DNA of 34,009 nt from a virus: the IMG/VR virus record IMGVR_UViG_3300030329_003295, positions 5,286-39,294 of that record. The stretch is one strand, 5' to 3'. Under the pieces are notes generated by a model. The model did no database searches. It was not told the origin of the DNA and was given only the letters and a program-made list of their open reading frames with translations. Made by a program: the position numbers and the translations under genes. Of the stretch, positions 6,192 to 32,538 are shown piece by piece. Position 1 is the first letter of the stretch; each line of letters begins with the position of its first letter.

Positions 6192-9100
6192 TTAACTCAA
6201 TAAAGATTCAATTCCGCCTTTAGTTGGACGTATCATAGCCGAAACGGAATCATTTGGAAATAGGGAAGCGTACCTAGCACGAGTTTCAGGTTGAGCAAAA
6301 TTGTTTGAAGCTGCACTAGGTACGTTGATTACCGCCGGACGGTTGGTGGGAGTTACCGCCGGGGGTATATTTATTCTAGGATCAATTGGAACGACAGGGA
6401 ATTCATTCCATGGCGCAATAGGGACAGTCCGTGTTTTATTTCTCTCGTCTTCTGCTCTTTTGCTGCTATAAAGATCGCTTAAACTTTCCGAAGTCATGTA
6501 ATCTGGAACATAAGGTAAAGCACCTTTTGAGTAAATAAATCCTCTGGAAATCATGTAATTAACAACATCTTTAGCAATACCGTCCATTTGTAGTTTTGAT
6601 TGGCCTGTTTCCAAAAGATCTATTGCAAGGTCCGGATTTTCTAAAACGTCTAAAAAGAAATCAGCTTTTAACGCTGCGGGCATTGAAGTCATTATTTCTC
6701 TTGCTTGATTAACGGCGGCTGTAGAACCCCGTGTGACAACAGCGAGGGAACCAGTGCCCCCTGCATCTCCGCCAACAGCCCGATATAGTTTAGATGCCGT
6801 GGCAGAACCAAGAGCAGAGGCCAATAATTCAATTGAAGTTCCTAATTTTTGAGCAAGGTCATCCGCGCTTAAAGATTTACCCGAGGCCGCTAACATATCA
6901 ATCTCTCCGATCCGTGTTAACAGCTTATTCATTCTGTCTACTTCTGATTTGGTCATTACGTCATTTTTAACAACCCACTCAGCAAGAGTAATTTTGTTGT
7001 CGCTTCGAGGCATTGGTTTAAAAAACAATTCATGTGCTTTTATAGCACTAAACTGACCATCAGATTTTAATCCGGCTTGGTTTAAAATTGAATTTACCAA
7101 GGAAGATTTGAAGCCTCTTTTTGCCCCATCTCGTGTAACAACTGTTCCATTTTCTAAGGTTTGCTCTACTGGAGCATTCTTTGCTACCCTCCAAAATTTT
7201 TCAAGAAGTGCGCCCGGTTTAGTTTGTGTATTAGAGAAAAGAGTTTCAAAAGGTAACGACATATCTTCCGGGGCAACAAACATATTACCTTCTTTTTTCA
7301 ACAGATAAAACCAATCCTGTTCATCTTTTGCATTTCTCATTCGAGCTTTATTATTTTCAATTACTTTTAAATGCTCACCGTTTGTTTGAATGATTAAATC
7401 AAGATCTTTTTTCATATCGGGAAAAGCTTGAATTAAACCCTTCGCCTCCGAAGTTTCCATCCATCGCTCTAATGATCTTTGGCTAAAGTTTCCCTCTGAG
7501 TCAAATCCAAAATCTCTAAACCGTCTAAGGGCTGTTTCCATGACCCCACGAGTTGTCGTAGATTTATTTAAAGAATCATATAAAGCCTCTTTAAGTTTTG
7601 GAGCATCGTTTAATAAAGCATCATTTGCTTTCAGAACTTCTTTTAACCTAGGTAAATCGATAAATCCGCTTGTCGTATCAAAGGCTTGCATCCGTATTTG
7701 ATTTAGTAACGCACCCGCTTGTTCTGATTCTAAGTTTTGTCCAATTCCTAAACCTGTAGCTTCTTGCAGTTTTAACAAGTTTTCTAAAACAACTCTTTCC
7801 TGTGGAGGTAAAGATTCATCAGCAAGACGGTTTTGAATAGTTCGTATTGCAACAGGAACTTCTACAGTATTTAGATCATCTGCAAATTGTGTGTAAAATC
7901 TTTGTAAATTTTCGTTCAAACGGCTGATGGAGCCAAGGAAATCATCTCTAGCCTGATTTGCCTCAATTGGCGAAAGATTTAAAAGAGTCGTTAATTCTTG
8001 AGCAATCTCAAATTGCCCAATCGCATCAATTGCTCTTGCCCTTTCAGAGGCAAATGAAGAACTAAATACGCTATCAATTACAGATTCTGGAGCAATGCGA
8101 AAAGCACCTGTTCTATCCTTTGCAGTGATTTTTCCTACAAAGGGTTTTGTAAAAGCGTTATTTAATGCCGCTGAATAAGCTCTTGCTAAATCATATTGAC
8201 CTGTATTATCGCCTAAATTTCCTGGAAAACTTTCAAGATCTTCTAAAAAAGCATTTGCCATTTGGTTCAAAAAGTTTGCTTTTTGATTATCTTGTTGCCC
8301 CGCAGCTACTCGCGCTTCATTTAACAATTTTGATCGTCGAAAAGTCAAAGTTTTGCTACTAATAGATCCCTCCGGAGAAACAAGGGGGGCGTCCCCAAAA
8401 ACAGATTTTGCTAATGCAAGAGGGTCTTCCGCAGCATCAAGGCCATCTTCCAGATCATAACCAAGCTCTTCAAGAGTATCCATAACGTATTCATTGATAT
8501 CTTTGTATTGAGGATCTTTTAAAAAACTTGTTCGATCTTTTGGGTCATCTGGCAACATAGAAAACCAAGTCGAGACAAAATTAGGGGCATTTACCACTTT
8601 TCCGTCTGGTAAGGTAATTGTATTAAGAGCACCTCGCCCGTTACGAAAATCCCCAATATTAATTTTATATTCTGGAACTTCTGCCCAAAGTCGTTTTTCA
8701 TTGTTCCGAGCAGATTTAAGACGTTTTAAAATCATATCTTGAAGGTCTTGTGATGCTTTTAATAGATCTGCTTCGTCACCAGACTGAAAAAGTTTTTTCC
8801 TTGCGTCTGTGTATTTTAAAACAGCCGCTGCAACATCTTCCTCCATGTCTTTTGCAAAAACTAGGGAAGCTAATTCTCCTGCAACCCCCATTAAGTCTTT
8901 ATCTTCAGAAGCAAATCCTGCAACAATCATATTTTGCATTATTTCTCTAAATTCTCGGTGGGCCTCTTCGGCTTTTGTTCCAAGTTGATTGATGCTTCTT
9001 TGCATTGAAGGGCTTGAGCTTTGCCCTGTGTTTGCCTGCTGTAAAAGCATAAACCCTAATGAATTTCCTGCTAAAGCTGTTGGCAGTTCAACCATTTCAC

Positions 9101-10466
9101 CTGTGCGGGGATCAATTGTCTCGGTAATTATGTCGCCAAATTCAGCAAATAAATCAGCTTCTGTTACAGGGGGAACGTAACCTTTGTCTCCTTTTTTTCC
9201 TTTTGCGGGAACCACGTTAACGTCAGGACTTTTCGGAATTTCTCTACCTGCTAATACAGCATTCCTAGAAGTGGTATACCACTTTAATCTACGATAAACT
9301 TCCTGTGGGTCTTCAACAGTAGAAATCATTTCGAGGGCATAAACGGCTAATTCAGCTTTTCGTTTATTTCCCAAAGCTTTTGAAGTCTTTGCAACAGCGT
9401 CTTTTCTAAATGCGGAATTAGAAAGTTTTTTTGCGCCTCTAAAAATATTAATTGATGTTGGAATGGCACGTTTTAAAGCAATGTCTGTTAAAACGCCTCC
9501 CGTCGTTGCACCTAAACTTTCTATAAAAAACTCAGCAAAAGCCCCTTCGGCATCACTGCCCAATTCAATAGCTCTAGCGCCTCCGTATGCCGCTCCAAGC
9601 TCCACTAAACCTGTTCTTATAGGCTGCGTTCTTGCTTCAGTTTGAACCCCGGCTAATGATCTTTCGATTGCCCCAGTAAGTCTGGGACCAATCCGTTTTT
9701 TTTCTGCAAAATTTGTAATAAGATTAGAACCAAGGTTTCCTTTAAAAAGATACGGAGCAGCGAACCAACTGCTATAATCCATTAAAGCTTGTCCACCTTT
9801 AAACTTGCCTGCTTGGTCCGGCAAATAAACATCTGCCTCGCCAAAAATAAAATCATTTGCAGATTGAGCAGGTTTTTCAGTCATAATAGTTGATACGAGT
9901 CCCCCTATAATGGGACCTGCAATTCTAAGCGCGGCTGTCCACGGCGTGACTGGGGGTATGCCACTTAATGCATAGTTTGTTGCAGTAGCGCCTGCATAAA
10001 AACGTGGAAAAGAAGTTAGACCAGGAATGATTCTACTTTTCATCCCCTCTCCGAATTTCCCCGCTGTTATTTTTTCTCCAGTAGGACCTCTGGCAAAGTA
10101 TTCAAAAATATCCCCTTCGTTTTTGAAAATATTTGCTTTTGCTTCTGGGGTCAGTTGAGAGCCTGATACAATCTCCCCCGTTCTTGTATTTTTAAAATTA
10201 AAGGTATTTAAGATTGGAGCCGTTCCATCTCTTAATGTAGCAACTGATAAATCATCTGGATTGAGATTATTTTTGCGTATAACATCTCGAACTACTCTGT
10301 TTTCAAGAGCTTGAGCCAATGTCGCATCCGCAAGGTCCCCAAATTGAATATTAAAATTATCCATTTTTTCTTGCGTGTATATTGGATTAGAAAAGTTTGA
10401 AGGGAAGCGTTCAAAATCTTCTTGTTTTGTTAAAGTGGGAACAGTGTTTAAATTTTCTTCCGCCAT
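6192..10466 (-). CDS. Giant internal virion/DNA-ejection type protein
   Basis: At 1424 aa this is the largest gene in the window. It is mostly predicted alpha-helical, with long charged stretches and no enzyme motif that I can see. Residues about 175-195 (PWTAALRIAGPIIGGLVSTIM) are hydrophobic and glycine-rich and could insert into a membrane. Size, composition and position downstream of the tail hub resemble T7 gp16, except that the transglycosylase activity is on a separate downstream gene here. Its ATG overlaps the preceding stop as TAATG. A role as internal core or ejection protein crossing the cell envelope is inferred; direct homology to gp16 is not shown. Confidence 0.72.
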   Translation of the reverse strand: MAEENLNTVPTLTKQEDFERFPSNFSNPIYTQEKMDNFNIQFGDLADATLAQALENRVVRDVIRKNNLNPDDLSVATLRDGTAPILNTFNFKNTRTGEIVSGSQLTPEAKANIFKNEGDIFEYFARGPTGEKITAGKFGEGMKSRIIPGLTSFPRFYAGATATNYALSGIPPVTPWTAALRIAGPIIGGLVSTIMTEKPAQSANDFIFGEADVYLPDQAGKFKGGQALMDYSSWFAAPYLFKGNLGSNLITNFAEKKRIGPRLTGAIERSLAGVQTEARTQPIRTGLVELGAAYGGARAIELGSDAEGAFAEFFIESLGATTGGVLTDIALKRAIPTSINIFRGAKKLSNSAFRKDAVAKTSKALGNKRKAELAVYALEMISTVEDPQEVYRRLKWYTTSRNAVLAGREIPKSPDVNVVPAKGKKGDKGYVPPVTEADLFAEFGDIITETIDPRTGEMVELPTALAGNSLGFMLLQQANTGQSSSPSMQRSINQLGTKAEEAHREFREIMQNMIVAGFASEDKDLMGVAGELASLVFAKDMEEDVAAAVLKYTDARKKLFQSGDEADLLKASQDLQDMILKRLKSARNNEKRLWAEVPEYKINIGDFRNGRGALNTITLPDGKVVNAPNFVSTWFSMLPDDPKDRTSFLKDPQYKDINEYVMDTLEELGYDLEDGLDAAEDPLALAKSVFGDAPLVSPEGSISSKTLTFRRSKLLNEARVAAGQQDNQKANFLNQMANAFLEDLESFPGNLGDNTGQYDLARAYSAALNNAFTKPFVGKITAKDRTGAFRIAPESVIDSVFSSSFASERARAIDAIGQFEIAQELTTLLNLSPIEANQARDDFLGSISRLNENLQRFYTQFADDLNTVEVPVAIRTIQNRLADESLPPQERVVLENLLKLQEATGLGIGQNLESEQAGALLNQIRMQAFDTTSGFIDLPRLKEVLKANDALLNDAPKLKEALYDSLNKSTTTRGVMETALRRFRDFGFDSEGNFSQRSLERWMETSEAKGLIQAFPDMKKDLDLIIQTNGEHLKVIENNKARMRNAKDEQDWFYLLKKEGNMFVAPEDMSLPFETLFSNTQTKPGALLEKFWRVAKNAPVEQTLENGTVVTRDGAKRGFKSSLVNSILNQAGLKSDGQFSAIKAHELFFKPMPRSDNKITLAEWVVKNDVMTKSEVDRMNKLLTRIGEIDMLAASGKSLSADDLAQKLGTSIELLASALGSATASKLYRAVGGDAGGTGSLAVVTRGSTAAVNQAREIMTSMPAALKADFFLDVLENPDLAIDLLETGQSKLQMDGIAKDVVNYMISRGFIYSKGALPYVPDYMTSESLSDLYSSKRAEDERNKTRTVPIAPWNEFPVVPIDPRINIPPAVTPTNRPAVINVPSAASNNFAQPETRARYASLFPNDSVSAMIRPTKGGIESLLS

Positions 10467-13180
10467 TATTCGTATTCACTCTCGGTTTGTGCTAGAGCCT
10501 CTGCCATACTTTTTGAAGAAGCTGAGTCAGTGATTCTAACCATTGCTAGAACACCGTCTAACTCTCGTATTTTTGCCATTGTTGAACCAATATTTTCTAA
10601 AGCCGCCGGATCTTCATCGGCAAGTGATTGTAACAATCTTTGCCTTTGTTGCTGCATCATGTTTACAAGTTTTTTAAATTTTTCCGCTTCGGTTTTAGGG
10701 TTTGTGAACACGTTGGTTGCTTTCGGTAAAATCCTCTCAACTCGTTGAATGTCATAAACAGCTAATCTTGGATTAACTGTAAGGGCCGAAACAGCAATTA
10801 AATTAAATCTTTCAAGCGCCAAACGAGCTTCTTCAGTATCTTTAAAAGTTTCTGAGAAAAATTCTGGAGCAATCGTACCACCAATATTGTTTGCAAGAGC
10901 AAACAGATTTGAAAAGAAACCCGTGCCTTTTCTAGCATCTTCTTCCGTAATATCTCCATAAAGGTTTTGAATAGTTTCTTTTTCTAGTTTTCGTAAAGCT
11001 TTCTGATCTTCATCGGGTAATGGAACTACTTCAGGGTTACCATCTGCGCCCACAACTGTATGAACATAAACCTTTGTATCAAGATAACTTGTGGCTTCTC
11101 CTAAACGCTCTTTTCCGTAATTTATAATTTTTTGTTTCTTGATCGTTGAGTAAACGTCTGAGTTACCAAGAGATTTGGCCTCCACGTCTTTCAATAACTT
11201 CATTACAGGATTACCTTGTGCATCAGTCTCAACGAATGTGTTATTATCATAACTTGTAATAATTTTACCTTGATTAGTAATATATGCTTGTGGATTTACA
11301 CTTTCAGTGCCAACCTTCTTCGCTTCAGCAGATCCTTCTTCTCTTAAATTTGCTTCGTTAACTTGTTCCTGTAGTGCTTGACCTTCAGGAGATCCAATTG
11401 CAGCTATTGTTTGCGTAATTTTACCATCTGGACCTTTGATGGTAAATTTCATCAATCCGCTAGTGGAAGCTTTAAGTTCGCTTTCTTGTTTTTCCAAAGC
11501 TAATTTTTTATTTTTATAATCTTGATCGAAATATATTTTAAGTTTGTCGAGAGTAAGTCTTTCGTCGCCTTGAAGTAGCCTATGTTCTTCAAACGCCTTT
11601 GTAATCATCATATCAGCGTGTTTTAAAGCACGATCTTTTTCCGCCTCACTTAAATCAAGGTTTTTAATCTTTTCGTCAAACTCTCTTCGTAAAAGAGCTT
11701 CTTCTGATCTAAAATCTCTATCTTTTTGGTTTTCAAATTGAGTGGCAATTCTTGAAAGTGAGTTTTGAGCCGCTTGAAAGTTTCTTTCGCTTTGTGCTGC
11801 AACTCTATCAATCGCTGCCTTTTTATTTATAACTGCAAATTCAAAATCTTGTGCGTTTTCAATTTTTGCTAATTCATACTTGTTTTTAGCACCTAATACT
11901 TCTAATTCATTACTTAAATCTAATTGTGCGTTTAATGTAGCCAACTCTTTTTGAGCCGACGCTAATCGATTAGCAGCAAGGACTTGTGCCTGCCTGTCTT
12001 TACTATTTTCAGCCGCTGTTGCTGTAATTTTTAAATTCGCAAGTTTTTCTTCAATATTTAATTTTTCATTTTGTAGTTCTCTTCTTAACTGAGCCTCTGA
12101 CGTTGCAGCTCCCTGCCTTGCTTTTATTTCTATATTAGTCAAATTAATACGATTTAAGTTTTCTTGTGCTAATTTATTCATCTCAAAAGCTCTGCCTTGG
12201 GCACCCGCCAATTGTCTTTCGGCGCTTTCAAGAGCACTTAAATCCATTTGTTGTTCTTGTTGTTTTTGCACATCTTTCATCTGTTGAAACCGTGCGGCCC
12301 GTTCACCAATTCTAGGGGCAAGTTGGGATTCAGCTAATGAATTTGCTAATCTTTCAGCTACAGAGCGTCCGTCAGTAGATCCTGCAAATTGTAAGCCTGC
12401 CTGCGCTATGTCAAACAACATCTGAGCTTGAGTCAACCGCTTCTGTTCTTCAAGTTGCGCTGCTCGTTCTTGAGGTGCTCCCAAGATACCGCGTCGGATT
12501 CCTTGGGCCTCTTCATAATAAGGCATTAAGGACGTGCCCAAATCCAGAGCTACAGGCTCTTGAGCCTTTGGTCCACCGGGAGGAGTACCCGTCTGAAACT
12601 TTCGGACCATCACAGGTCCACCTTGGTTAAAATTTACGGGTGGAGTGTTGCCCGCCCCCATTGTCATAAGTTCACCAATACCTTGTGACATCGGAGCGTC
12701 TTCCGACATATCCGTATCACCAACAAGACCCATCATCAATTCGCCTATGCCGCTATCTAAAGCACCTTGTTCAGTCATCATTATGGTAGGTTGAACCATA
12801 GTCAAAACACTTTCAGGAGTTCGCATAGCGTCTTCCTCACCAACAAAACTGGCAAGCTCTTGATATCGTGCCTCTAATGGAGCTTCGTTGCCCCTAAAAG
12901 CATCAATTAAACCTTTTGGATCTTGGGCCGCGTCTATACCTTCGTCAACCTGCGCCATGTACTCTTCGCCCAGTTGTGCCCCGTCCATTGCTACGTCTTG
13001 TAACATAGCTTCAGGAGCAACAACCTCGTTGCCCATAGGCATGGGCATGGGCATGGGCATGGGTGGCCCGTCGGGCATGGGCATGGGAGAAGGTGCCGCT
13101 TCCATCGAACCACCCATTTGTTTAAACAGAGGGCGTTGCATAACAGAACCTCCCCCCATATATTGTTTATACATACTCAT
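10466..13180 (-). CDS. Coiled-coil virion protein, ejection type
   Basis: A 904-aa protein. The N-terminal 200 residues are low in complexity, Met/Pro/Gly/Asp-rich, with GGGSV, GGSM and GGPV elements and a Pro-Met repeat. Residues about 230-560 are a very long helical, Ala/Gln/Glu/Lys-rich region consistent with a coiled coil. The C-terminal part is mixed and more compact. It resembles a gp15-like internal virion protein by place and length only. The start at 13180 has a strong AAGGAGG Shine-Dalgarno about ten bases upstream. It overlaps the 1424-aa gene by one base. A structural or tail-fibre-adhesin alternative cannot be excluded. Confidence 0.72.
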   Translation of the reverse strand: MSMYKQYMGGGSVMQRPLFKQMGGSMEAAPSPMPMPDGPPMPMPMPMPMGNEVVAPEAMLQDVAMDGAQLGEEYMAQVDEGIDAAQDPKGLIDAFRGNEAPLEARYQELASFVGEEDAMRTPESVLTMVQPTIMMTEQGALDSGIGELMMGLVGDTDMSEDAPMSQGIGELMTMGAGNTPPVNFNQGGPVMVRKFQTGTPPGGPKAQEPVALDLGTSLMPYYEEAQGIRRGILGAPQERAAQLEEQKRLTQAQMLFDIAQAGLQFAGSTDGRSVAERLANSLAESQLAPRIGERAARFQQMKDVQKQQEQQMDLSALESAERQLAGAQGRAFEMNKLAQENLNRINLTNIEIKARQGAATSEAQLRRELQNEKLNIEEKLANLKITATAAENSKDRQAQVLAANRLASAQKELATLNAQLDLSNELEVLGAKNKYELAKIENAQDFEFAVINKKAAIDRVAAQSERNFQAAQNSLSRIATQFENQKDRDFRSEEALLRREFDEKIKNLDLSEAEKDRALKHADMMITKAFEEHRLLQGDERLTLDKLKIYFDQDYKNKKLALEKQESELKASTSGLMKFTIKGPDGKITQTIAAIGSPEGQALQEQVNEANLREEGSAEAKKVGTESVNPQAYITNQGKIITSYDNNTFVETDAQGNPVMKLLKDVEAKSLGNSDVYSTIKKQKIINYGKERLGEATSYLDTKVYVHTVVGADGNPEVVPLPDEDQKALRKLEKETIQNLYGDITEEDARKGTGFFSNLFALANNIGGTIAPEFFSETFKDTEEARLALERFNLIAVSALTVNPRLAVYDIQRVERILPKATNVFTNPKTEAEKFKKLVNMMQQQRQRLLQSLADEDPAALENIGSTMAKIRELDGVLAMVRITDSASSKSMAEALAQTESEYE
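13037..13087 (-). repeat. GGGCAT hexanucleotide repeat encoding Met-Pro
   Basis: Three exact GGGCAT units and one near copy, a short interruption, then two more units give an alternating Pro-Met tract near the N terminus of the 904-aa protein. The six-base unit keeps frame on slippage. Confidence 0.8.
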
Positions 13181-18256: not shown

Positions 18257-20329
18257 TTATGCGATTGCGTAGAAGAAATAATCTCCATCAGTTATGTCGG
18301 TTGTAGTAGAAAACCCTGCATTTAACGGGTCTATGTAATCAGAGCCTGTCACATCCGCCGCCGTAGTATTAAAATACATTAAAGGGTCATTACCTGCTGC
18401 AATTCCCCGCGCCGAATCAAAAACAAACCAGTCTCCTGTCGAGTCTGTTCTTTTTAGCATAACAAAACGCGAACCTGACGTAAAACCACAATCCACATCT
18501 GTTGCCCCGGACTGGGTAAACGTACCAACTTTACTGACCCCCGCAAGAGTTGCAAACAAAAATGCGGTATAATGAGCAGATGCCGCCGCATTAACCGTAG
18601 CATTAGTTCCAAGAGAAAACACTGTTGAAGTAGGAGCCGTATCATTCCAACGGTTATGATGGTCGGTTCTAGCGGCGTTAGAGTTTAAAACCAGATAATC
18701 AGTTGCATCACCAAAATAAACCTGAAACCCTCCACCACCACCTGTGCCGACTAACCATGTAACCCACATCATCTCTGGTACTACGCCCAGGTTATGAGAT
18801 ACTGTCATGTTGCTACCTGTGCCAGTGTAGCACACACAATCAAAAAACCCTTTAGCACGTTTCCACGAGTAATTTATATATGTAGAAGTATTTTGATTTA
18901 CGTCACTATCATCTCCAATTTCAACACCTGTCATGTTGTCGAAGTTTCTAATTCGGGTAGTTCCTCCGTCATACTGCGCTCCACTTGCAAGATTAGTGTT
19001 AACGGTTCCCCAGTTATAACTACTACTTTCACGACCAATAAATCTAGAAGAAGTCAGCCAGTTTCCTGTAGCTCCTCTAGCTTTAAGTATACTGACATCT
19101 ACGGGAAACCCTGTGCCAGGTACAATTCTTCCGCTAGTACCGTTTCCTGTGTACGCAGTAGGAGTAAACACCGAAGTTGAAGCTGTCGGTTCATTCATCA
19201 TCTGATCACGGATAGCTACATAAATATAGTTTCCACTACTTGCATTTACTTCCGCGTTAGAACCATTAACACCAAACCCTGTAGGCAGGATTCGCACATG
19301 ACTGTACGCACTTTCAACAGCGGTAGAGTTAGGGTATAACTGTTGAGAAGCCGTTGTCTGTTCCGTGGTAGAAAAAGTCAAACCTCTTACAGTATCAAAG
19401 ATTAACCAGTTCTCTGTTGAATCAGTTCTTTTAATTAACAACCACTGAGGTTGCCAGCCAATCGCGGTAATATCCTGGTCAGAAGCTGACCCTGTATAGT
19501 TTCCGCAATAAATCATTCCATTGGAAGAAGTGTCGTGGCCAAATAAATAACCCACAAAGGTTTTGCCACTTGAATTAGTGTTACCGCTATTGCCAACAGA
19601 AAACTCTGTTGCAGTCGGAGCCGTATCGTTCCAGTAACTTGATTCATCTACACGAGCATTTGTACCGTTTAGTCTCATCCCGTAGTCTTCAGGGCTAGAG
19701 CCATCTACGCCTCTGTGATATACCACCCAGTTTTCACCGCCATCGGTAGCATTCTTTACTATCATCATCCCGGGAACTGACCCCAGGTTATGGCTAACAG
19801 TTCTCCCTGAGACACCATTTCCGGTCCAGGTTAAGGCTTCAAAAAAATTACCCTGGTTTTTAAAACTCCACGCAACATACCTTTCGCTAGAACCATTTAC
19901 TTCATCCGCAGTACCAAGACTAAAACCGTCACTATCAAAAGAAGTAACCATCTGGGCGTTAGCTTGACTAGATGCGTTATCCTGACTTTGGAGATAATAC
20001 CCCGCCCCTCTCGCCGTATCGGATAAAACAAACGTCTTAGTGTTGTCCCTGCTTCTGATCCAGACCATCCCGCCGCCAGATAAAGAAACCTCATTGTCTA
20101 TGCTTCTAGCGGAAGCATTTCCGTCATACACAAAAGTGTTAAAAGTGGTAGCTACATTAGGGGTGTTACCAAGAGTAGGCCATGTGCCCGCAGTCACATA
20201 AGTATCAACCTCATCCATAGACCAGACACCCGGTGCAGGAGTGTCTTGAAAATTATTCGTAGGCGGAGAGGGACTCTTCGTAATCATGTTCCCGACAAAA
20301 GGAGAAATTTTGGTTAGCCTATCGACCAT
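18257..20329 (-). CDS. Tail fibre/receptor-binding protein with repeated DUF7483-like modules
   Basis: A 690-aa beta-rich protein with repeated modules. Each module has a VSHNLGSVPGMM- or VSHNLGVVPEMM-type strand, a WNDTAPT(A/S)T..FS(V/L)G turn, a stretch ending in YLF or FLF, and a KRTDST(E/G)(N)W..FD(T/S)(V/A)RG element. Complete or partial modules occur at about 160-260, 280-370, 390-490, 500-600 and 610-690. This arrangement is common in marine phage fibres (I recall it as DUF7483). The N terminus (about 1-60) probably anchors to the tail. The likely role is adsorption to the host surface. The gene is followed by its assembly chaperone. Confidence 0.78.
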   Translation of the reverse strand: MVDRLTKISPFVGNMITKSPSPPTNNFQDTPAPGVWSMDEVDTYVTAGTWPTLGNTPNVATTFNTFVYDGNASARSIDNEVSLSGGGMVWIRSRDNTKTFVLSDTARGAGYYLQSQDNASSQANAQMVTSFDSDGFSLGTADEVNGSSERYVAWSFKNQGNFFEALTWTGNGVSGRTVSHNLGSVPGMMIVKNATDGGENWVVYHRGVDGSSPEDYGMRLNGTNARVDESSYWNDTAPTATEFSVGNSGNTNSSGKTFVGYLFGHDTSSNGMIYCGNYTGSASDQDITAIGWQPQWLLIKRTDSTENWLIFDTVRGLTFSTTEQTTASQQLYPNSTAVESAYSHVRILPTGFGVNGSNAEVNASSGNYIYVAIRDQMMNEPTASTSVFTPTAYTGNGTSGRIVPGTGFPVDVSILKARGATGNWLTSSRFIGRESSSYNWGTVNTNLASGAQYDGGTTRIRNFDNMTGVEIGDDSDVNQNTSTYINYSWKRAKGFFDCVCYTGTGSNMTVSHNLGVVPEMMWVTWLVGTGGGGGFQVYFGDATDYLVLNSNAARTDHHNRWNDTAPTSTVFSLGTNATVNAAASAHYTAFLFATLAGVSKVGTFTQSGATDVDCGFTSGSRFVMLKRTDSTGDWFVFDSARGIAAGNDPLMYFNTTAADVTGSDYIDPLNAGFSTTTDITDGDYFFYAIA

Positions 20330-22146: not shown

Positions 22147-25100
22147 CTATCCTTGCAATAAAGCGGATGGAGTAGAATTTGAATGCACATAACCTTTTGA
22201 CATCCGAATATCTTGCATATACCCAAAAAAATGTTGCGTAGGCGAACCGCTGTCGTGCAACGCACCTATCAACGTAGGAATAGTAGTATTTTGAAGAGTA
22301 TGCATTGAGCCGCTAAGAGTCTCGTAGGTCCCCCCGTTAAAAGATAATTTTAGATCTGAGCCACTTCGTATTAACGTGAACCATACCCAGGCATTTAGAC
22401 TGAACGTGCCCGTTGAATTTACATTTAAAGTGTTGCTCGAACCATCGCTGGAAGATAACCAGTTTAATTTCTGATCCGAACCATCGGTGATGTGTCGCAA
22501 AATAAAACCCTTGTCATTATTTTGATTATCCCATCTGGAGACAAGACAATTTCCATAACCGTTCTGACCCGCCGTTGCGTAGTACCAACCTTGAATGGTA
22601 AAATTGTCCGACCCAAAATTTTGACTATCCTCATTTGTGTTATTAAGGGAAATATAATCTCCCGTCCCGTCCAGCGATATTGTATTCACGCTAAACTTGG
22701 TCTGGTTACTACTTACTTTAGCATCAGCATAAAGTTGTAAATTTGCGGTTTGGGACAAATCTTTTATATTGGCTCCGGTAAACTTAAGATGGAAAGTAGA
22801 ACTACCAGATGCAAGAGGTGTAGTGGGGGGCGTAAAAGCAGAGGTATAAATTTTAGACTTATTGACACGAAGGTCCGAAATCCAGCCTGTCCAGGCGTAA
22901 CTTCCCGAAGTAGCCTGATTTTCCCCAACCCAGCAGATTAAAGTAGAGCTATAATCTACACTATCCGAAACAGATACAACCTGTACTCCGTTAAGGTAGA
23001 CTTTACACGTATTGGCACTCGAATCTCTAACCGCTGCTAAATGATACCACTCATTAAATACATAAGCATTATTACCAGACATACTCCAGCTTGAACCGTT
23101 ATAATATCCTATTGTGTTGTTGCTGCCTGTACCTAAAATAAAACCTGTAGAGCCGTTTGCTGCATTCCGAAAATCGACGATAGTTCCGGTATTCCCGCTA
23201 GGAAGGCTTACAGCCTTGAACCAGCACTCAACTGTAAAATCTCCCGTCCCGAAGCCAAACTCTGTGGAGGTAGATCCGGAATTTGCTAAAACATAATCCG
23301 TGCTATTATTTCCATTATTAACGTAAAGTGAACCGCCATTATCCGTAGCACTATATGTAGCATAGTCGTACGGACCTACGTCATTGACTGTAGGTGCGCC
23401 CTGCAAAGTCACGGCGTGGTTATCCCCTGATTTATCAAAAAAACTAGGGGCATTTAGCAATAATAATTTTGTATTAGTGGTGTCTGAAAGTTTAGAGGTT
23501 GGGACGGTAAGAGAAGAGCTATCCGGATTATATTCGTTAGTGGCACTAAATCTAAGATCTGTCATAAGACAATCGGCATCATAGTTATTATTTGCATGAT
23601 AACCCGCTATTGTTACATTGGAAAAATCCACAGTGCTGGAATTAGTGAGGTTAGCTAACCTTGAGCCGTTTGAGAAAAGAGACATGGAGTTGCTGCTATT
23701 TCTTGTTACGCATATATGCGTCCAGGTATTTAAAACTAATGAAGAAGCCGCCTGGTTTGGAAAAATAGAAGCATCCAAATAAAAATAAAGTTCTCTAGAT
23801 CCACGAACCACCCCGATCTGTGTTTCCACGCCACCAGAATTGGTTGACAAAAACATATCCTGATTATCCGTCCCACCATTAGTGAAAAGCTTTATCCAGA
23901 ACTCAACTGTAAAAGCCCCTGTGAAAATATGATCGGAAGAATCTGCAACAGTAATTGTATCGTCACTACCATCAAATCTTACTGAATAACCCCCGGATCG
24001 ATAAGGAGATCGAGTTCCCTGAATTACCGTCCCTGCGGTAGTCTGGGTCAAAGGTGAACCACTACTATCTGTAAAAGTTCCATTAACCCCACTGTTAGAA
24101 CCTGACGCCTGAGTTAACGAAGTTGTGTATTTTGAGTTTGTAACTAAAAAGGCCAGACTAAACGATGTCGTTGTATCTACTGCTGCATTCACTCCATCAG
24201 TGACCGAAAACGTAACCGAAAAAGATCCCGCGTTTGAAGCGTTTGGAGTCATTGTAAATACATTAGTGCTTTGGGAAATTGTACATACCGTATCTCCGCC
24301 TACCTGAATATTAGACCCAGATAAAGAGCCGCCTCCTCCAACCGTAAAACTCCACGTTAGACTTAAACCTTCAGGGTCCGTTGCAGAACCTGTAACCGTT
24401 GTTGCAGTTTCGTCAGTAGCCAGGACATAAGTAGAAGAATCTCCTGAACCGCCCCCACTAAACGCCAGACTTACTGACGTTGGAGCCGCATTAGTAACAG
24501 TTGCAATTTTATACCACGCTCCGGAACCTCCGGAACCATGCCTGATAAATAAAGTTTTTGTACCTGTTACATATGCCTGATCACCCTCCGAAGGCGAGGA
24601 TATAGCCTCCAACGCTGCTATATTAGCCACAACTGTTACGCCGCCGCCGCCAACAGTAGAAAAAGAAAGTACACCACTAGCATTTGTTGTAAGGGCCTGA
24701 CCACTGCTACCATCACTTGTCGGCAAAGTAAAAGTTTTAGCAAAAGCCTGAACATTGTTAGCCGAACCCCCCATTCCCGAATGGCTGGAACAATAATAAT
24801 AAAGTTGCGCGGTGTCCTGTTCAGTCCGTATTTCAGTATAAGAACCTGCGGAACCCGGAGTTCCAACAGAAGTTACATTAGTTGTATATTCTGACCCAGA
24901 ATTGTGTGTCCCGTCACTTGTCGTGCTAAACTTCAAAGGGTGACCACTATTGGTAGAATCACTTTGGTCAAAACGATATGTCACGTTAGGAGTTAAAGAT
25001 GCCCCTTGTTGAACCTGACCATCAAGATAAAATTTATTGCCGCTACCCGGATTAGCAACAGTGACCACGACTTCCGCTATCGGGTCAATATCTACAGAAG

Positions 25101-25371
25101 CAGGAGTTATAAAAAGAGATGCATTTCCACCAAGATTAAGTAGAGATCCCGTAGAAGAACTAAGTAAAACCCTGGTAAGAGTAGTTCCACTGTGCGTGTA
25201 AACTCCTTCACCTAGTTCCCATGCAGCCCCTTCAACTATACCGTATCGAACCTTCTTGCTGTTCAACGAAGAAGGAAACGCTTGAAACCCGCTCTGGGCG
25301 GTCCCCACATTTACGGTTCCTGTCCCTGTCGTACTGACAGTAACTTTCACCCTATCTGCAAAGTTAATCAT
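22147..25371 (-). CDS. Large tail fibre/adhesin with cupredoxin-like, Ig-like and three LamG-like domains
   Basis: A 1074-aa multidomain protein. The N terminus (1-95), MINFADRVKVTVSTTGTGTV, is a tail-attachment type segment of marine phages. Residues about 97-206 resemble a cupredoxin, with a possible copper set of His144, Cys194, His197 and Met200 in YYYCSSHSGMGG. A stalk-type motif follows (LPTSDGSSGQALTTN). Residues about 295-410 look like a cadherin/Ig-type domain (GSATDPEGLSLTWSF). Three LamG/concanavalin-like domains follow at about 460-640, 675-890 and 900-1074, each with a YSVRFDG- or IQGWYY-type strand and a W.H..V.R strand. Such domains bind glycans, so host recognition is likely. 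Copper binding is a prediction from residue pattern only. Confidence 0.78.
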   Translation of the reverse strand: MINFADRVKVTVSTTGTGTVNVGTAQSGFQAFPSSLNSKKVRYGIVEGAAWELGEGVYTHSGTTLTRVLLSSSTGSLLNLGGNASLFITPASVDIDPIAEVVVTVANPGSGNKFYLDGQVQQGASLTPNVTYRFDQSDSTNSGHPLKFSTTSDGTHNSGSEYTTNVTSVGTPGSAGSYTEIRTEQDTAQLYYYCSSHSGMGGSANNVQAFAKTFTLPTSDGSSGQALTTNASGVLSFSTVGGGGVTVVANIAALEAISSPSEGDQAYVTGTKTLFIRHGSGGSGAWYKIATVTNAAPTSVSLAFSGGGSGDSSTYVLATDETATTVTGSATDPEGLSLTWSFTVGGGGSLSGSNIQVGGDTVCTISQSTNVFTMTPNASNAGSFSVTFSVTDGVNAAVDTTTSFSLAFLVTNSKYTTSLTQASGSNSGVNGTFTDSSGSPLTQTTAGTVIQGTRSPYRSGGYSVRFDGSDDTITVADSSDHIFTGAFTVEFWIKLFTNGGTDNQDMFLSTNSGGVETQIGVVRGSRELYFYLDASIFPNQAASSLVLNTWTHICVTRNSSNSMSLFSNGSRLANLTNSSTVDFSNVTIAGYHANNNYDADCLMTDLRFSATNEYNPDSSSLTVPTSKLSDTTNTKLLLLNAPSFFDKSGDNHAVTLQGAPTVNDVGPYDYATYSATDNGGSLYVNNGNNSTDYVLANSGSTSTEFGFGTGDFTVECWFKAVSLPSGNTGTIVDFRNAANGSTGFILGTGSNNTIGYYNGSSWSMSGNNAYVFNEWYHLAAVRDSSANTCKVYLNGVQVVSVSDSVDYSSTLICWVGENQATSGSYAWTGWISDLRVNKSKIYTSAFTPPTTPLASGSSTFHLKFTGANIKDLSQTANLQLYADAKVSSNQTKFSVNTISLDGTGDYISLNNTNEDSQNFGSDNFTIQGWYYATAGQNGYGNCLVSRWDNQNNDKGFILRHITDGSDQKLNWLSSSDGSSNTLNVNSTGTFSLNAWVWFTLIRSGSDLKLSFNGGTYETLSGSMHTLQNTTIPTLIGALHDSGSPTQHFFGYMQDIRMSKGYVHSNSTPSALLQG

Positions 25372-26124: not shown

Positions 26125-26774
26125 TATTGTTTAGCCCTTATTACTTGACCGGTACGATATTGATCGGTTGTTTCTTTAGCTTCGCCCAACAGCTTTATTC
26201 CCACCAAAGATTCTTGAAATCTGCTGTTATACATCGCCATGACATCTTGTTCCCCCTTCATGTAAATGTAGGCTTCCACTAAAGCTCCATACAACAAAGT
26301 GAGTTCTGCGTTTTCACTTAACCACGTAGTTCCCCCATCGGCACCTGCGGTTAAACTTGCAGGGCGGTATAAATAATGAAGTTCTGTTGTAAAAGCCGCG
26401 TTAGGGGTGGGAGCTAAAATAAAATTACTTACATCAAAGGTAGCATAGTATTTCGGCGAACCTGTTGTACTAGAATCTGGCGTATACGTTTGAATAAAGC
26501 TCACATCTTTAAACTCAATAAAAAACTTATCATTATCTGTACCCATTAAACTTAACGAATATGGAGCCAAAAAATCTAACGGCATAGCAAGGTATTTGTT
26601 GTTTTGCGTTGTTGTTGCCGTCACGTTTTTTCTAAACAAACTAAGTTGGACACTTTTTAGGATACGTTCCTCGGCTAAACGTATAAATACAGGAAGATTA
26701 GTTACAAAAGATGTTTCCGTATTCTCTGTATAATCCTGTATAGCAGTTTTTAATTGTGCATATGTAAAACTCAT
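26124..26774 (-). CDS. Head-tail adaptor protein (SU10-adaptor-like)
   Basis: A 216-aa protein opening MSFTYAQLKTAIQDYTENTE, then FVTNLPVFIRLAEERILKSV, which matches podovirus neck or adaptor proteins (the SU10 adaptor type, analogous to T7 gp11 or P22 gp4). The C-terminal half contains a helical AYIYMKGEQDVMAMYNSRFQ segment typical of the family. It would form the ring below the portal. It overlaps both flanking genes (four and one bases). Family placement is from remembered sequence patterns. Confidence 0.75.
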   Translation of the reverse strand: MSFTYAQLKTAIQDYTENTETSFVTNLPVFIRLAEERILKSVQLSLFRKNVTATTTQNNKYLAMPLDFLAPYSLSLMGTDNDKFFIEFKDVSFIQTYTPDSSTTGSPKYYATFDVSNFILAPTPNAAFTTELHYLYRPASLTAGADGGTTWLSENAELTLLYGALVEAYIYMKGEQDVMAMYNSRFQESLVGIKLLGEAKETTDQYRTGQVIRAKQ

Positions 26775-27133
26775 GTTGTAGTCACCGTAACTGTTCCAAC
26801 AGACCCTTCTAACGCCGTTGTGTTGTCTATTTCGGTTGGCAATTCTGCATTAGAAGAAGCAGTTGACCAATTTCCATTTCCTAAATAAGTAATTCCATTA
26901 GTCGTTTTTACTAAAAAAGCTTGTGCCGTATCGGGCGATTGAGGTCTAGGATCTTTTAAAGCTTGAGGGTCAATAACTTTTGGAAACGGACCTAATTGGG
27001 GTTGTTTAGGCTCATACTCATCTGGGCCCACCAAAAGCCCCGTCCACTCTCGACGCATTTCGGTGTATTTATAACGAAACCCCGATCTATCCGAAATAGC
27101 ATATGCATTTTTTCCAGAAGCATATTTACTCAT
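26771..27133 (-). CDS. Small neck/tail protein with SVGTVTV C terminus
   Basis: A 120-aa protein starting MSKYASGKNAYAISDRSGFR, then a MRREWTGLLVGPDEYEPKQP segment, a combination widespread in marine phage neck modules. The last residues, GSVGTVTVTTT, almost copy the end of the 98-aa protein at 15403-15699. It sits between the two adaptor-type genes, with overlaps of one and four bases. A structural neck component is likely, but no biochemical function is known to me. Confidence 0.75.
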   Translation of the reverse strand: MSKYASGKNAYAISDRSGFRYKYTEMRREWTGLLVGPDEYEPKQPQLGPFPKVIDPQALKDPRPQSPDTAQAFLVKTTNGITYLGNGNWSTASSNAELPTEIDNTTALEGSVGTVTVTTT

Positions 27134-27801
27134 TAATTTGTCCTAAAATATTGCATTTGCGGAACCACGCTAAAAGAAGCTCTATCCCGATCTTCCACCA
27201 TAGCACGTTCAAACTCCTCTTCGTATACGGCTTTTAATAATTGAATACGGTCGGGCGCACGTTTCATAGCTAAATAATAAGCTAAACCCGCAGCTAAACA
27301 GGGGTAAAATCGAAAAGGCATCTCTAAAGTATTAACTTGAGTATCAGCATCGTCCATGCGCGTTAAAGCATCATAATAAATAACATCGGTGCTATTTTCT
27401 GGAGTAGGCCAGTACTTTAATCGGGGAGTTATCTGACGGTCTAAAAAATATTGAGTGGGTCTTCCTTGCGTAGATTTAGTAGGTATAGATAAATACGCAT
27501 CCCTGCTAATTCTTTGTAACGCGTAATCTGTGTTACTTCTTTGAATAACTACAGATAAAACGTCAATTACGTCCGCACCTAAATCTGTATACGACGTTCC
27601 CTGCGTTAAGGTAAAATTACGTTGAGCAATCGTCCATTGATTTAATCCACGGTTAGCCCATTCTGCAAGCATAAGATTTAAAGAACGCTTTGCAGTCTTT
27701 AGATCATAACCTGTACGAACTTCTAAACCGCAACGCTCAAACGCTTCCTCAATATATTCCGCTACATCAAGTTCAAAGTTAGTTGAGCCAGAAATTGCCA
27801 T
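27133..27801 (-). CDS. Second neck/tail adaptor-type protein
   Basis: A 222-aa protein. It opens with FELDVAEYIEEAFERCGLEV, continues with LKTAKRSLNLMLAEWANRGL and has a late helical part PFRFYPCLAAGLAYYLAMKR. This helix-rich frame with a central beta region is the pattern of podovirus head-tail connector or tail accessory proteins (P22 gp4-like, T7 gp11-like). It probably stacks with the 216-aa adaptor. The start at 27801 lies three bases beyond the upstream stop, with only a weak Shine-Dalgarno. Confidence 0.72.
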   Translation of the reverse strand: MAISGSTNFELDVAEYIEEAFERCGLEVRTGYDLKTAKRSLNLMLAEWANRGLNQWTIAQRNFTLTQGTSYTDLGADVIDVLSVVIQRSNTDYALQRISRDAYLSIPTKSTQGRPTQYFLDRQITPRLKYWPTPENSTDVIYYDALTRMDDADTQVNTLEMPFRFYPCLAAGLAYYLAMKRAPDRIQLLKAVYEEEFERAMVEDRDRASFSVVPQMQYFRTN

Positions 27802-32091: not shown

Positions 32092-32538
32092 CTAGTAATG
32101 TAAAATGTCTTCGGGATCATTAATCTTGGCTAAAATCTCGTCATCATTCAAAATTCTAACCTCACCACCGTCTATATTAAAGCGAGAACCCGCATAACGG
32201 GCAAACATTACCCAATCTTTCTCCGCGCACCACGGGCCAGACGGAAATTTTTCAGAATCTTTATATGCTAAAGAACCCACTTTTAATACATAACCCACTT
32301 GAGTAGACACTTGTTGCTGTTCAACAACTTGATCTGGCAAATAAACGCCCGATTCAGTCTTCCCTTTGCCCCTATACGGCAAAATTAACAATCTCCAACC
32401 AGTGGGGGAAGGCATTCTTTCTAGAAGAGAACCACCAATAGCCTCTGGATTTAACACTTTGGGCTGTTGATAAGCTTCGGAAAGGCTGGCTACAGCCTCT
32501 TTTACTCCGGTCAAATCGACCTTTGCACTTTCAGTCAT
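32092..32538 (-). CDS. GroES-like co-chaperonin
   Basis: A 148-aa protein whose residues about 45-140 follow the GroES/Cpn10 layout. GWRLLILPYRGKGKTESGVY is the conserved first strand and mobile-loop region. It is followed by QVGYVLKVGSLAYKD, then DWVMFARYAGSRFNIDGGEV, and ends with ILNDDEILAKI. The 40-residue N-terminal extension and the inserts are not present in bacterial GroES. It would cap host GroEL to fold phage proteins, probably the capsid, as T4 gp31 does. It lies just before the scaffold gene, separated by nine bases. It overlaps the upstream 65-aa gene by eight bases. Confidence 0.82.
   Translation of the reverse strand: MTESAKVDLTGVKEAVASLSEAYQQPKVLNPEAIGGSLLERMPSPTGWRLLILPYRGKGKTESGVYLPDQVVEQQQVSTQVGYVLKVGSLAYKDSEKFPSGPWCAEKDWVMFARYAGSRFNIDGGEVRILNDDEILAKINDPEDILHY

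What the first reader, a model, noticed from the sequence alone, without database searches (positions are those of the whole stretch)
24754..25083. Predicted cupredoxin domain with a full type-1 copper ligand set in a phage adhesin
Residues 97-206 of the 1074-aa fibre hold GHPLKFS and a later YYYCSSHSGMGG. His144, Cys194, His197 and Met200 match the His...Cys-x2-His-x2-Met order and spacing of small blue copper proteins such as amicyanin. A copper or redox site on a virion tail would be striking; alternatively the fold is a structural relic.
Basis: partly seen in the sequence, partly recalled or inferred. Interest (0 to 1): 0.6.

Follow-up and report, generated by a model that had tools for sequence, protein, structure and literature searches.

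The report
Copper-protein module on marine phage tails
A tail fibre of a marine phage contains a domain built like small blue-copper proteins, with all four metal-holding residues intact; the same module recurs on tails and baseplates of many marine phages, kept or lost as a set, so it probably really binds a metal (most likely copper), although nobody has measured this.

Summary
In detail: residues 97-206 of the 1074-aa fibre (24754-25083, minus strand) hold His144, Cys194, His197 and Met200. AlphaFold gives a confident beta-sandwich (pLDDT 91.5) whose leading fold matches are cupredoxins. In a diverse 58-sequence alignment (36-61% identity to the window) the only five gap-free invariant columns are the four ligands and one Tyr. 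Among 419 unique domain copies, 347 keep His-Cys-His-Met. Four change only the axial Met, to Leu or Gln, as natural type-1 sites do. Nearly all the rest have lost Cys and both His together. In one pair (L322/L300, 95% identical) three of six differences are exactly His, Cys and His. This is the pattern of a functioning metal site, not a relic. The module is not specific to this fibre: 338 GenBank phage records (mostly cyanophages) carry it in fibres and baseplate proteins. In close relatives of this phage it sits on other structural genes, and SAR86 and euryarchaeal lipoproteins have it too. I read it as a mobile cupredoxin module of virion surface proteins, metal-stapled, probably by copper. 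Redox function is possible but unsupported. No paper describing it was found in the library searched. Metal identity is untested.

The parts
22147..25371 (-). 1074-aa phage tail fibre/adhesin gene that carries the domain
   Evidence: ORF; three Laminin_G_3 matches; PHROG tail/baseplate families
25087..25371 (-). N-terminal segment, residues 1-95, probable virion-attachment part
   Evidence: position; a similar N-terminus precedes the same domain in L100; inference for function
24754..25083 (-). cupredoxin domain, residues 97-206
   Evidence: AlphaFold models pLDDT 86.3 and 91.5; Foldseek/VIA matches to cupredoxins; hhalign
24976..24978 (-). Tyr132 codon, the only non-ligand invariant column without gaps in A2
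24940..24942 (-). His144 codon, predicted equatorial ligand 1
   Evidence: aligned with the plastocyanin-type His by hhalign
24790..24792 (-). Cys194 codon, predicted equatorial ligand 2 (only Cys in the domain)
24781..24783 (-). His197 codon, predicted equatorial ligand 3
24772..24774 (-). Met200 codon, predicted axial ligand (Leu or Gln in a few relatives)
23548..23973 (-). first LamG/ConA-like lectin domain, residues 467-608
   Evidence: PF13385 best stretch
22807..23340 (-). second LamG-like region, residues 678-855
   Evidence: phrog_3545/13163 match, PF13385 3 stretches
22198..22728 (-). third LamG-like region, about residues 882-1058
   Evidence: PF13385 3 stretches; tblastn to Rhizobium phage ConA-like protein over 882-1058
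26771..27133 (-). 120-aa structural gene without the domain here; its orthologues in near relatives carry the cupredoxin at their C-terminus
27133..27801 (-). 222-aa structural gene without the domain here; its orthologue in L238 has the cupredoxin fused to its N-terminus

Best explanation
Residues 97-206 are a genuine cupredoxin domain with an intact type-1-like metal site (His144, Cys194, His197, axial Met200). It is one copy of a mobile module that marine tailed phages splice into outer virion proteins (fibres, baseplate-wedge and neck/tail proteins), sometimes in tandem. Most likely the module folds as a rigid beta-sandwich between the virion-attachment end and the Ig/LamG receptor-binding end. 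The metal, most likely copper picked up with high affinity outside the cell, staples the Cys-x2-His-x2-Met loop to the opposite strand; such a staple can take the place of a disulfide, which is not expected to form in the cytoplasm where phage proteins assemble. Shown: ligand identity, fold prediction, conservation, loss of the three core ligands as a set, module mobility. Inferred: metal binding, copper as the metal, stabilising/adhesive role. Not supported by any evidence here: electron transfer.
For: Ligands verified. AF2 models pLDDT 86.3 and 91.5 with nine strands; His144 sits directly before a strand, Cys194 ends a strand, and His197/Met200 lie in the loop before the last strand, the cupredoxin order. 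Foldseek top PDB hits rusticyanin (E 3.5e-4 and 7.3e-4); VIA Z 9.3 over 103 residues to three-domain Cu nitrite reductase, 8.1-8.3 to rusticyanin; nearly all top 50 VIA rows are cupredoxins/multicopper oxidases. Hhalign to a cupredoxin profile 94%, E 1e-7, with all four ligands aligned, and 97%, E 3e-11, to a cellular HPFYIKT family over the PF00127 cut-off; reversed-profile control 0.2-2.6%. Only five gap-free invariant columns in A2, four of them the ligands. 57 of 58 domains have a single Cys, so no intradomain disulfide. 347 of 419 unique copies His-Cys-His-Met; axial changes only to Leu or Gln; core ligands otherwise lost together. L322 to L300: six differences in 111 residues include exactly His, Cys, His; random placement would give this with P about 9e-5. 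Mobility: five architectures among phages of one capsid group; 338 phage records.
Against: No metal, spectrum or solved structure. Foldseek TM-scores to single cupredoxins are moderate (0.45-0.61), and VIA Z 7-9 is near the level reached by common arrangements. The window domain itself has no Pfam match and relatives reach PF00127 only weakly (best E 0.0014, below the cut-off). A few copies have Ser for Cys with a His still aligned near position 144, in a paralogue clade that has already lost the site; this could be a secondary His. Intracellular free copper is very low, so loading would have to occur after lysis.
Confidence: 0.66

Rival explanations
1. The site is real but holds zinc (or another divalent metal) as a purely structural ion, because phage proteins fold in the cytoplasm where zinc is available and copper is not.
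For: Same ligand conservation and as-a-set loss fit any metal; general knowledge that azurin made in a bacterial cytoplasm can be isolated with zinc; no export signal on the fibre.
Against: Axial position varies only to Leu or Gln, the natural repertoire of type-1 copper sites; cellular relatives are exported lipoproteins of SAR86 and marine euryarchaeota, the compartment of copper proteins.
Confidence: 0.2
2. The site is redox-active: virion copper accepts or donates electrons at the host surface, for example to trigger or tune adsorption or baseplate rearrangement.
For: Full type-1 ligand set with Met/Leu/Gln axial variation, which tunes potential in known proteins; present in cyanophage gp7-like and connector baseplate proteins.
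Against: No partner, no conserved docking patch examined, many paralogues work without the site, many sibling phages lack the domain altogether.
Confidence: 0.08
3. Structural relic: the cupredoxin fold serves only as a spacer and the ligands are leftovers.
For: Clear relics exist: second copy in gp7-like proteins, T4-GC345 proteins, S-CREM2 ORF130, L300, L324.
Against: For this copy and most others the ligands are the most conserved columns of the domain; relics lose the three core ligands quickly and together, so retention implies selection.
Confidence: 0.06

Closest known systems
Cupredoxins (plastocyanin/azurin/amicyanin/rusticyanin; Pfam PF00127 Copper-bind and SCOP cupredoxin superfamily)
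   Same: Greek-key beta-sandwich prediction, His...Cys-x2-His-x2-Met ligand order, ligand register in profile alignment; axial Met/Leu/Gln variation
   Different: Embedded in a phage fibre with no signal peptide; 49 residues between His and Cys (38 in amicyanin, from general knowledge); H-P instead of the usual H-N after ligand 1; no Pfam match above cut-off; metal binding unmeasured
Cellular HPFYIKT plastocyanin-like domains (L160 Prochlorococcus, L163 Bacteroidetes) and SAR86/euryarchaeal lipoproteins with the same module
   Same: Profile match 97%, E 3e-11; lipoproteins carry the very same domain family
   Different: Exported or membrane-anchored cellular proteins, some passing the PF00127 cut-off, not virion parts
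Phage Ig-like/FN3 decoration domains
   Same: Small beta-sandwich modules that hop between structural proteins, occur in tandem and are dispensable among close relatives (the Ig comparison is from general knowledge)
   Different: Different superfamily; carries a conserved metal site
Cyanophage petE plastocyanin (auxiliary metabolic gene)
   Same: Cupredoxin encoded by a phage (S-SM1 petE; PMC2984593)
   Different: petE is a free-standing host-metabolism protein; here the domain is part of structural proteins

Membership tests
Cupredoxin superfamily | Greek-key beta-sandwich of about 8 strands | tested here: met
   AF2 pLDDT 91.5, nine strands; best fold matches are cupredoxins; Z values moderate, coordinates not inspected
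Cupredoxin superfamily | Type-1 ligands His, Cys, His (plus axial Met/Leu/Gln) in the right register | tested here: met
Cupredoxin superfamily | Ligands converge on one metal position in space | not testable with these tools
   model coordinates not exposed; strand/loop positions are compatible
Cupredoxin superfamily | Binds copper with type-1 spectrum | not testable with these tools
   needs expression and UV-vis/EPR
Pfam PF00127 Copper-bind | Score over curated cut-off (21.2 bits) | tested here: not met
   no match for the window domain; phage HPFYIKT-type copies reach 18.9-19.4 bits; cellular HPFYIKT proteins pass
Amicyanin | Short Cys-x2-His-x2-Met loop | tested here: met
Amicyanin | Closest fold match among solved cupredoxins | tested here: inconclusive
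   rusticyanin and three-domain nitrite reductase rank first; amicyanin not listed
Phage structural decoration module (works like) | Moves between structural genes of related phages | tested here: met
   fibre here; p120 C-terminus in 8 relatives; N-terminus of the 222-aa gene in L238; separate 217-aa gene in four

The most novel reading that the evidence does not exclude
Marine phage virions carry redox-active copper: cupredoxin modules on fibres and baseplates exchange electrons with, or sense the redox state of, the host surface and so control adsorption or tail triggering.
Probability: 0.08. Interest if true: 0.92.

Novelty: new variant of a known kind. Interest (0 to 1): 0.63.

Why it matters
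If the site binds copper, many marine tailed phages (338 GenBank records at E 1e-3, mostly cyanophages, plus pelagiphages and OM43 phages) are metalloprotein particles, with consequences for virion stability, adsorption and the marine copper budget. It would add a metal-bearing module to the known repertoire of phage decoration domains. It is testable directly, since cultured phages (S-TIM5, Syn9, P-HM1, HTVC028P) carry ligand-complete copies, and natural ligand-lost siblings such as L300/L322 give matched controls.

Tried and rejected
PDB sequence searches with the domain or its profiles gave only antibody-like chance hits and sub-threshold plastocyanin/pseudoazurin hits (E 0.3-0.9). NCBIfam gave only weak plastocyanin/halocyanin hits. 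Disulfide explanation rejected: one Cys per domain in 57 of 58. Immunoglobulin domain considered because Ig chains appear in fold and sequence lists; rejected because they rank below cupredoxins and do not share the ligand set. Literature: several searches for cupredoxin, plastocyanin-like, type 1 copper or blue copper with phage/cyanophage/tail found no description; most subscription papers and bioRxiv preprints are not covered. Virion mass spectrometry: in S-CREM2 (PMC10665884) the only domain found by the profile, in the regions fetched, lies in detected ORF130 and has lost its ligands; the S-SM1 proteome table is a supplement that could not be read (PMC3037559), so direct proteomic proof for a ligand-complete copy is still missing. 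The S-PM2 region fetched was not useful.

Full report
Observation. The protein carries three LamG/ConA-like domains and matches PHROG tail and baseplate families, so 'fibre/adhesin' is a fair name. The window is part of a 39.3-kb viral contig. Its capsid protein is 70-73% identical to those of Pelagibacter phages HTVC023P/HTVC027P and phage DSL-LC04; the host is unknown.

Fold. With 29 and then 58 homologues, AlphaFold2 gave models of mean pLDDT 86.3 and 91.5. Strand order places His144 immediately before a strand, Cys194 at the end of a strand, and His197 and Met200 in the following loop before the last strand. Foldseek's top PDB matches are rusticyanin (E 3.5e-4, 7.3e-4); VIA-align gives Z 9.3 over 103 residues to the first domain of three-domain copper nitrite reductase and 8.1-8.3 to rusticyanin, and nearly every one of the top 50 rows is a cupredoxin or multicopper oxidase. 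Z values of this size alone could be a common arrangement, so independent evidence matters. A profile of 168 domains aligned to cupredoxins collected with PF00127 at 94% probability, E 1e-7, and to a cellular HPFYIKT family that passes the PF00127 cut-off at 97%, E 3e-11, in both cases with His, Cys, His and Met in register; the reversed profile scored 0.2-2.6%. Caveat: the cupredoxin set was picked by its ligand motif. In the subfamily comparison with pseudoazurins the first His was not aligned.

Ligand conservation. In alignment A2 (58 sequences, 36-61% identical to the window, mean column identity 38%) the only invariant gap-free columns are Tyr132 and the four ligands. The patterns that fetched the cellular sequences do not include the ligands. 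Fifty-seven of 58 domains have exactly one Cys. Over all fetched loci, 419 unique domain copies gave 347 His-Cys-His-Met, three His-Cys-His-Leu and one His-Cys-His-Gln; a few are cut by contig ends; the rest have lost the core site. Leu and Gln are the axial residues of natural type-1 sites such as fungal laccases and stellacyanin (general knowledge). The ligand-lost copies fall mainly into three groups: a second copy in cyanophage gp7-like baseplate proteins, whose first copy in the same protein keeps all ligands; T4-GC345-type structural proteins; and L300/L324. Many of the ligand-lost copies were fetched by querying with such copies, so the 347:419 ratio is not a natural frequency. L300 and L322 differ at six of 111 residues, and these include exactly His to Asn, Cys to Ser and His to Gln; random placement of six changes would hit all three with P about 9e-5. 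Loss as a set is what one expects of residues that serve one function together. A few copies in the gp7-like second-copy clade show Ser for Cys with a His aligned near the first position; this is the only exception seen and may be alignment noise.

Distribution and mobility. tblastn finds the domain in 338 of 50,697 GenBank phage records at E 1e-3: Synechococcus and Prochlorococcus phages, pelagiphages, OM43 phages. The HPFYIKT sister type is in 274 records, including a subtilisin-like protease. Positions include fibres, gp7-like and connector baseplate proteins and a podovirus structural protein. Among 80 contigs whose capsid protein is about 90% identical to the window's, 15 have the module, but on other genes: C-terminus of the orthologue of the 120-aa protein at 26771-27133 (eight contigs), N-terminus of the orthologue of 27133-27801 (L238), a separate 217-aa gene (four), and others. 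Tandem copies occur. SAR86 and marine euryarchaeal lipoproteins, with N-terminal signal and lipobox-like Cys, also carry it, so exchange between cells and phages is likely; the direction was not tested.

Interpretation. The most economical reading is a mobile cupredoxin module of virion surface proteins that keeps a functional metal site. The metal probably acts as a staple in a protein that is not expected to form disulfides during cytoplasmic assembly; copper is favoured by the ligand set, zinc is the main rival because of where phages assemble. Electron transfer is not excluded but nothing here supports it. Steps shown: sequence, predicted fold, conservation, loss as a set, mobility. Steps inferred: metal binding, copper, stabilising role.

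Known or new. The fold class is known and phages are known to carry free plastocyanin genes (petE; PMC2984593). A cupredoxin as a recurrent, ligand-complete structural module of virions was not found in any paper in the library searched, and curated Pfam/PHROG/NCBIfam models do not name it for these proteins. I therefore rate it a new variant of a known kind.

Noticed in passing
window 26771-27133 and 27133-27801; L238, L243, L252, L264, L282, L299, L300: In near relatives the cupredoxin module is fused to orthologues of these two structural genes, which lack it here: module hopping within one phage group.
   Followed up: yes
L223 1849-5982, L228, L230, L231, L319 (cyanophage gp7-like baseplate proteins): Two cupredoxin-like copies in one protein, the first with all ligands, the second with all lost and a long insertion.
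   Followed up: partly
L131, L132, L135, L141, L142, L145, L153 (SAR86/SAR92) and L118 (Euryarchaeota): The same module in cellular proteins with a lipoprotein-type N-terminus, function unknown.
   Followed up: partly
L085 (cyanophage P-RSM6); L349, L351, L358: Axial Met replaced by Gln (P-RSM6) or Leu, as in stellacyanin- and laccase-type sites.
   Followed up: partly
window 32092-32538: Phage-encoded GroES-like co-chaperonin (PF00166, phrog_3188).
   Followed up: no
window 6192-10466 and 10466-13180: Two very large proteins (1424 and 904 aa) without any PHROG match.
   Followed up: no
window 18257-20329: 690-aa protein with DUF7483 (E 8e-90), a second structural/fibre-like protein.
   Followed up: no
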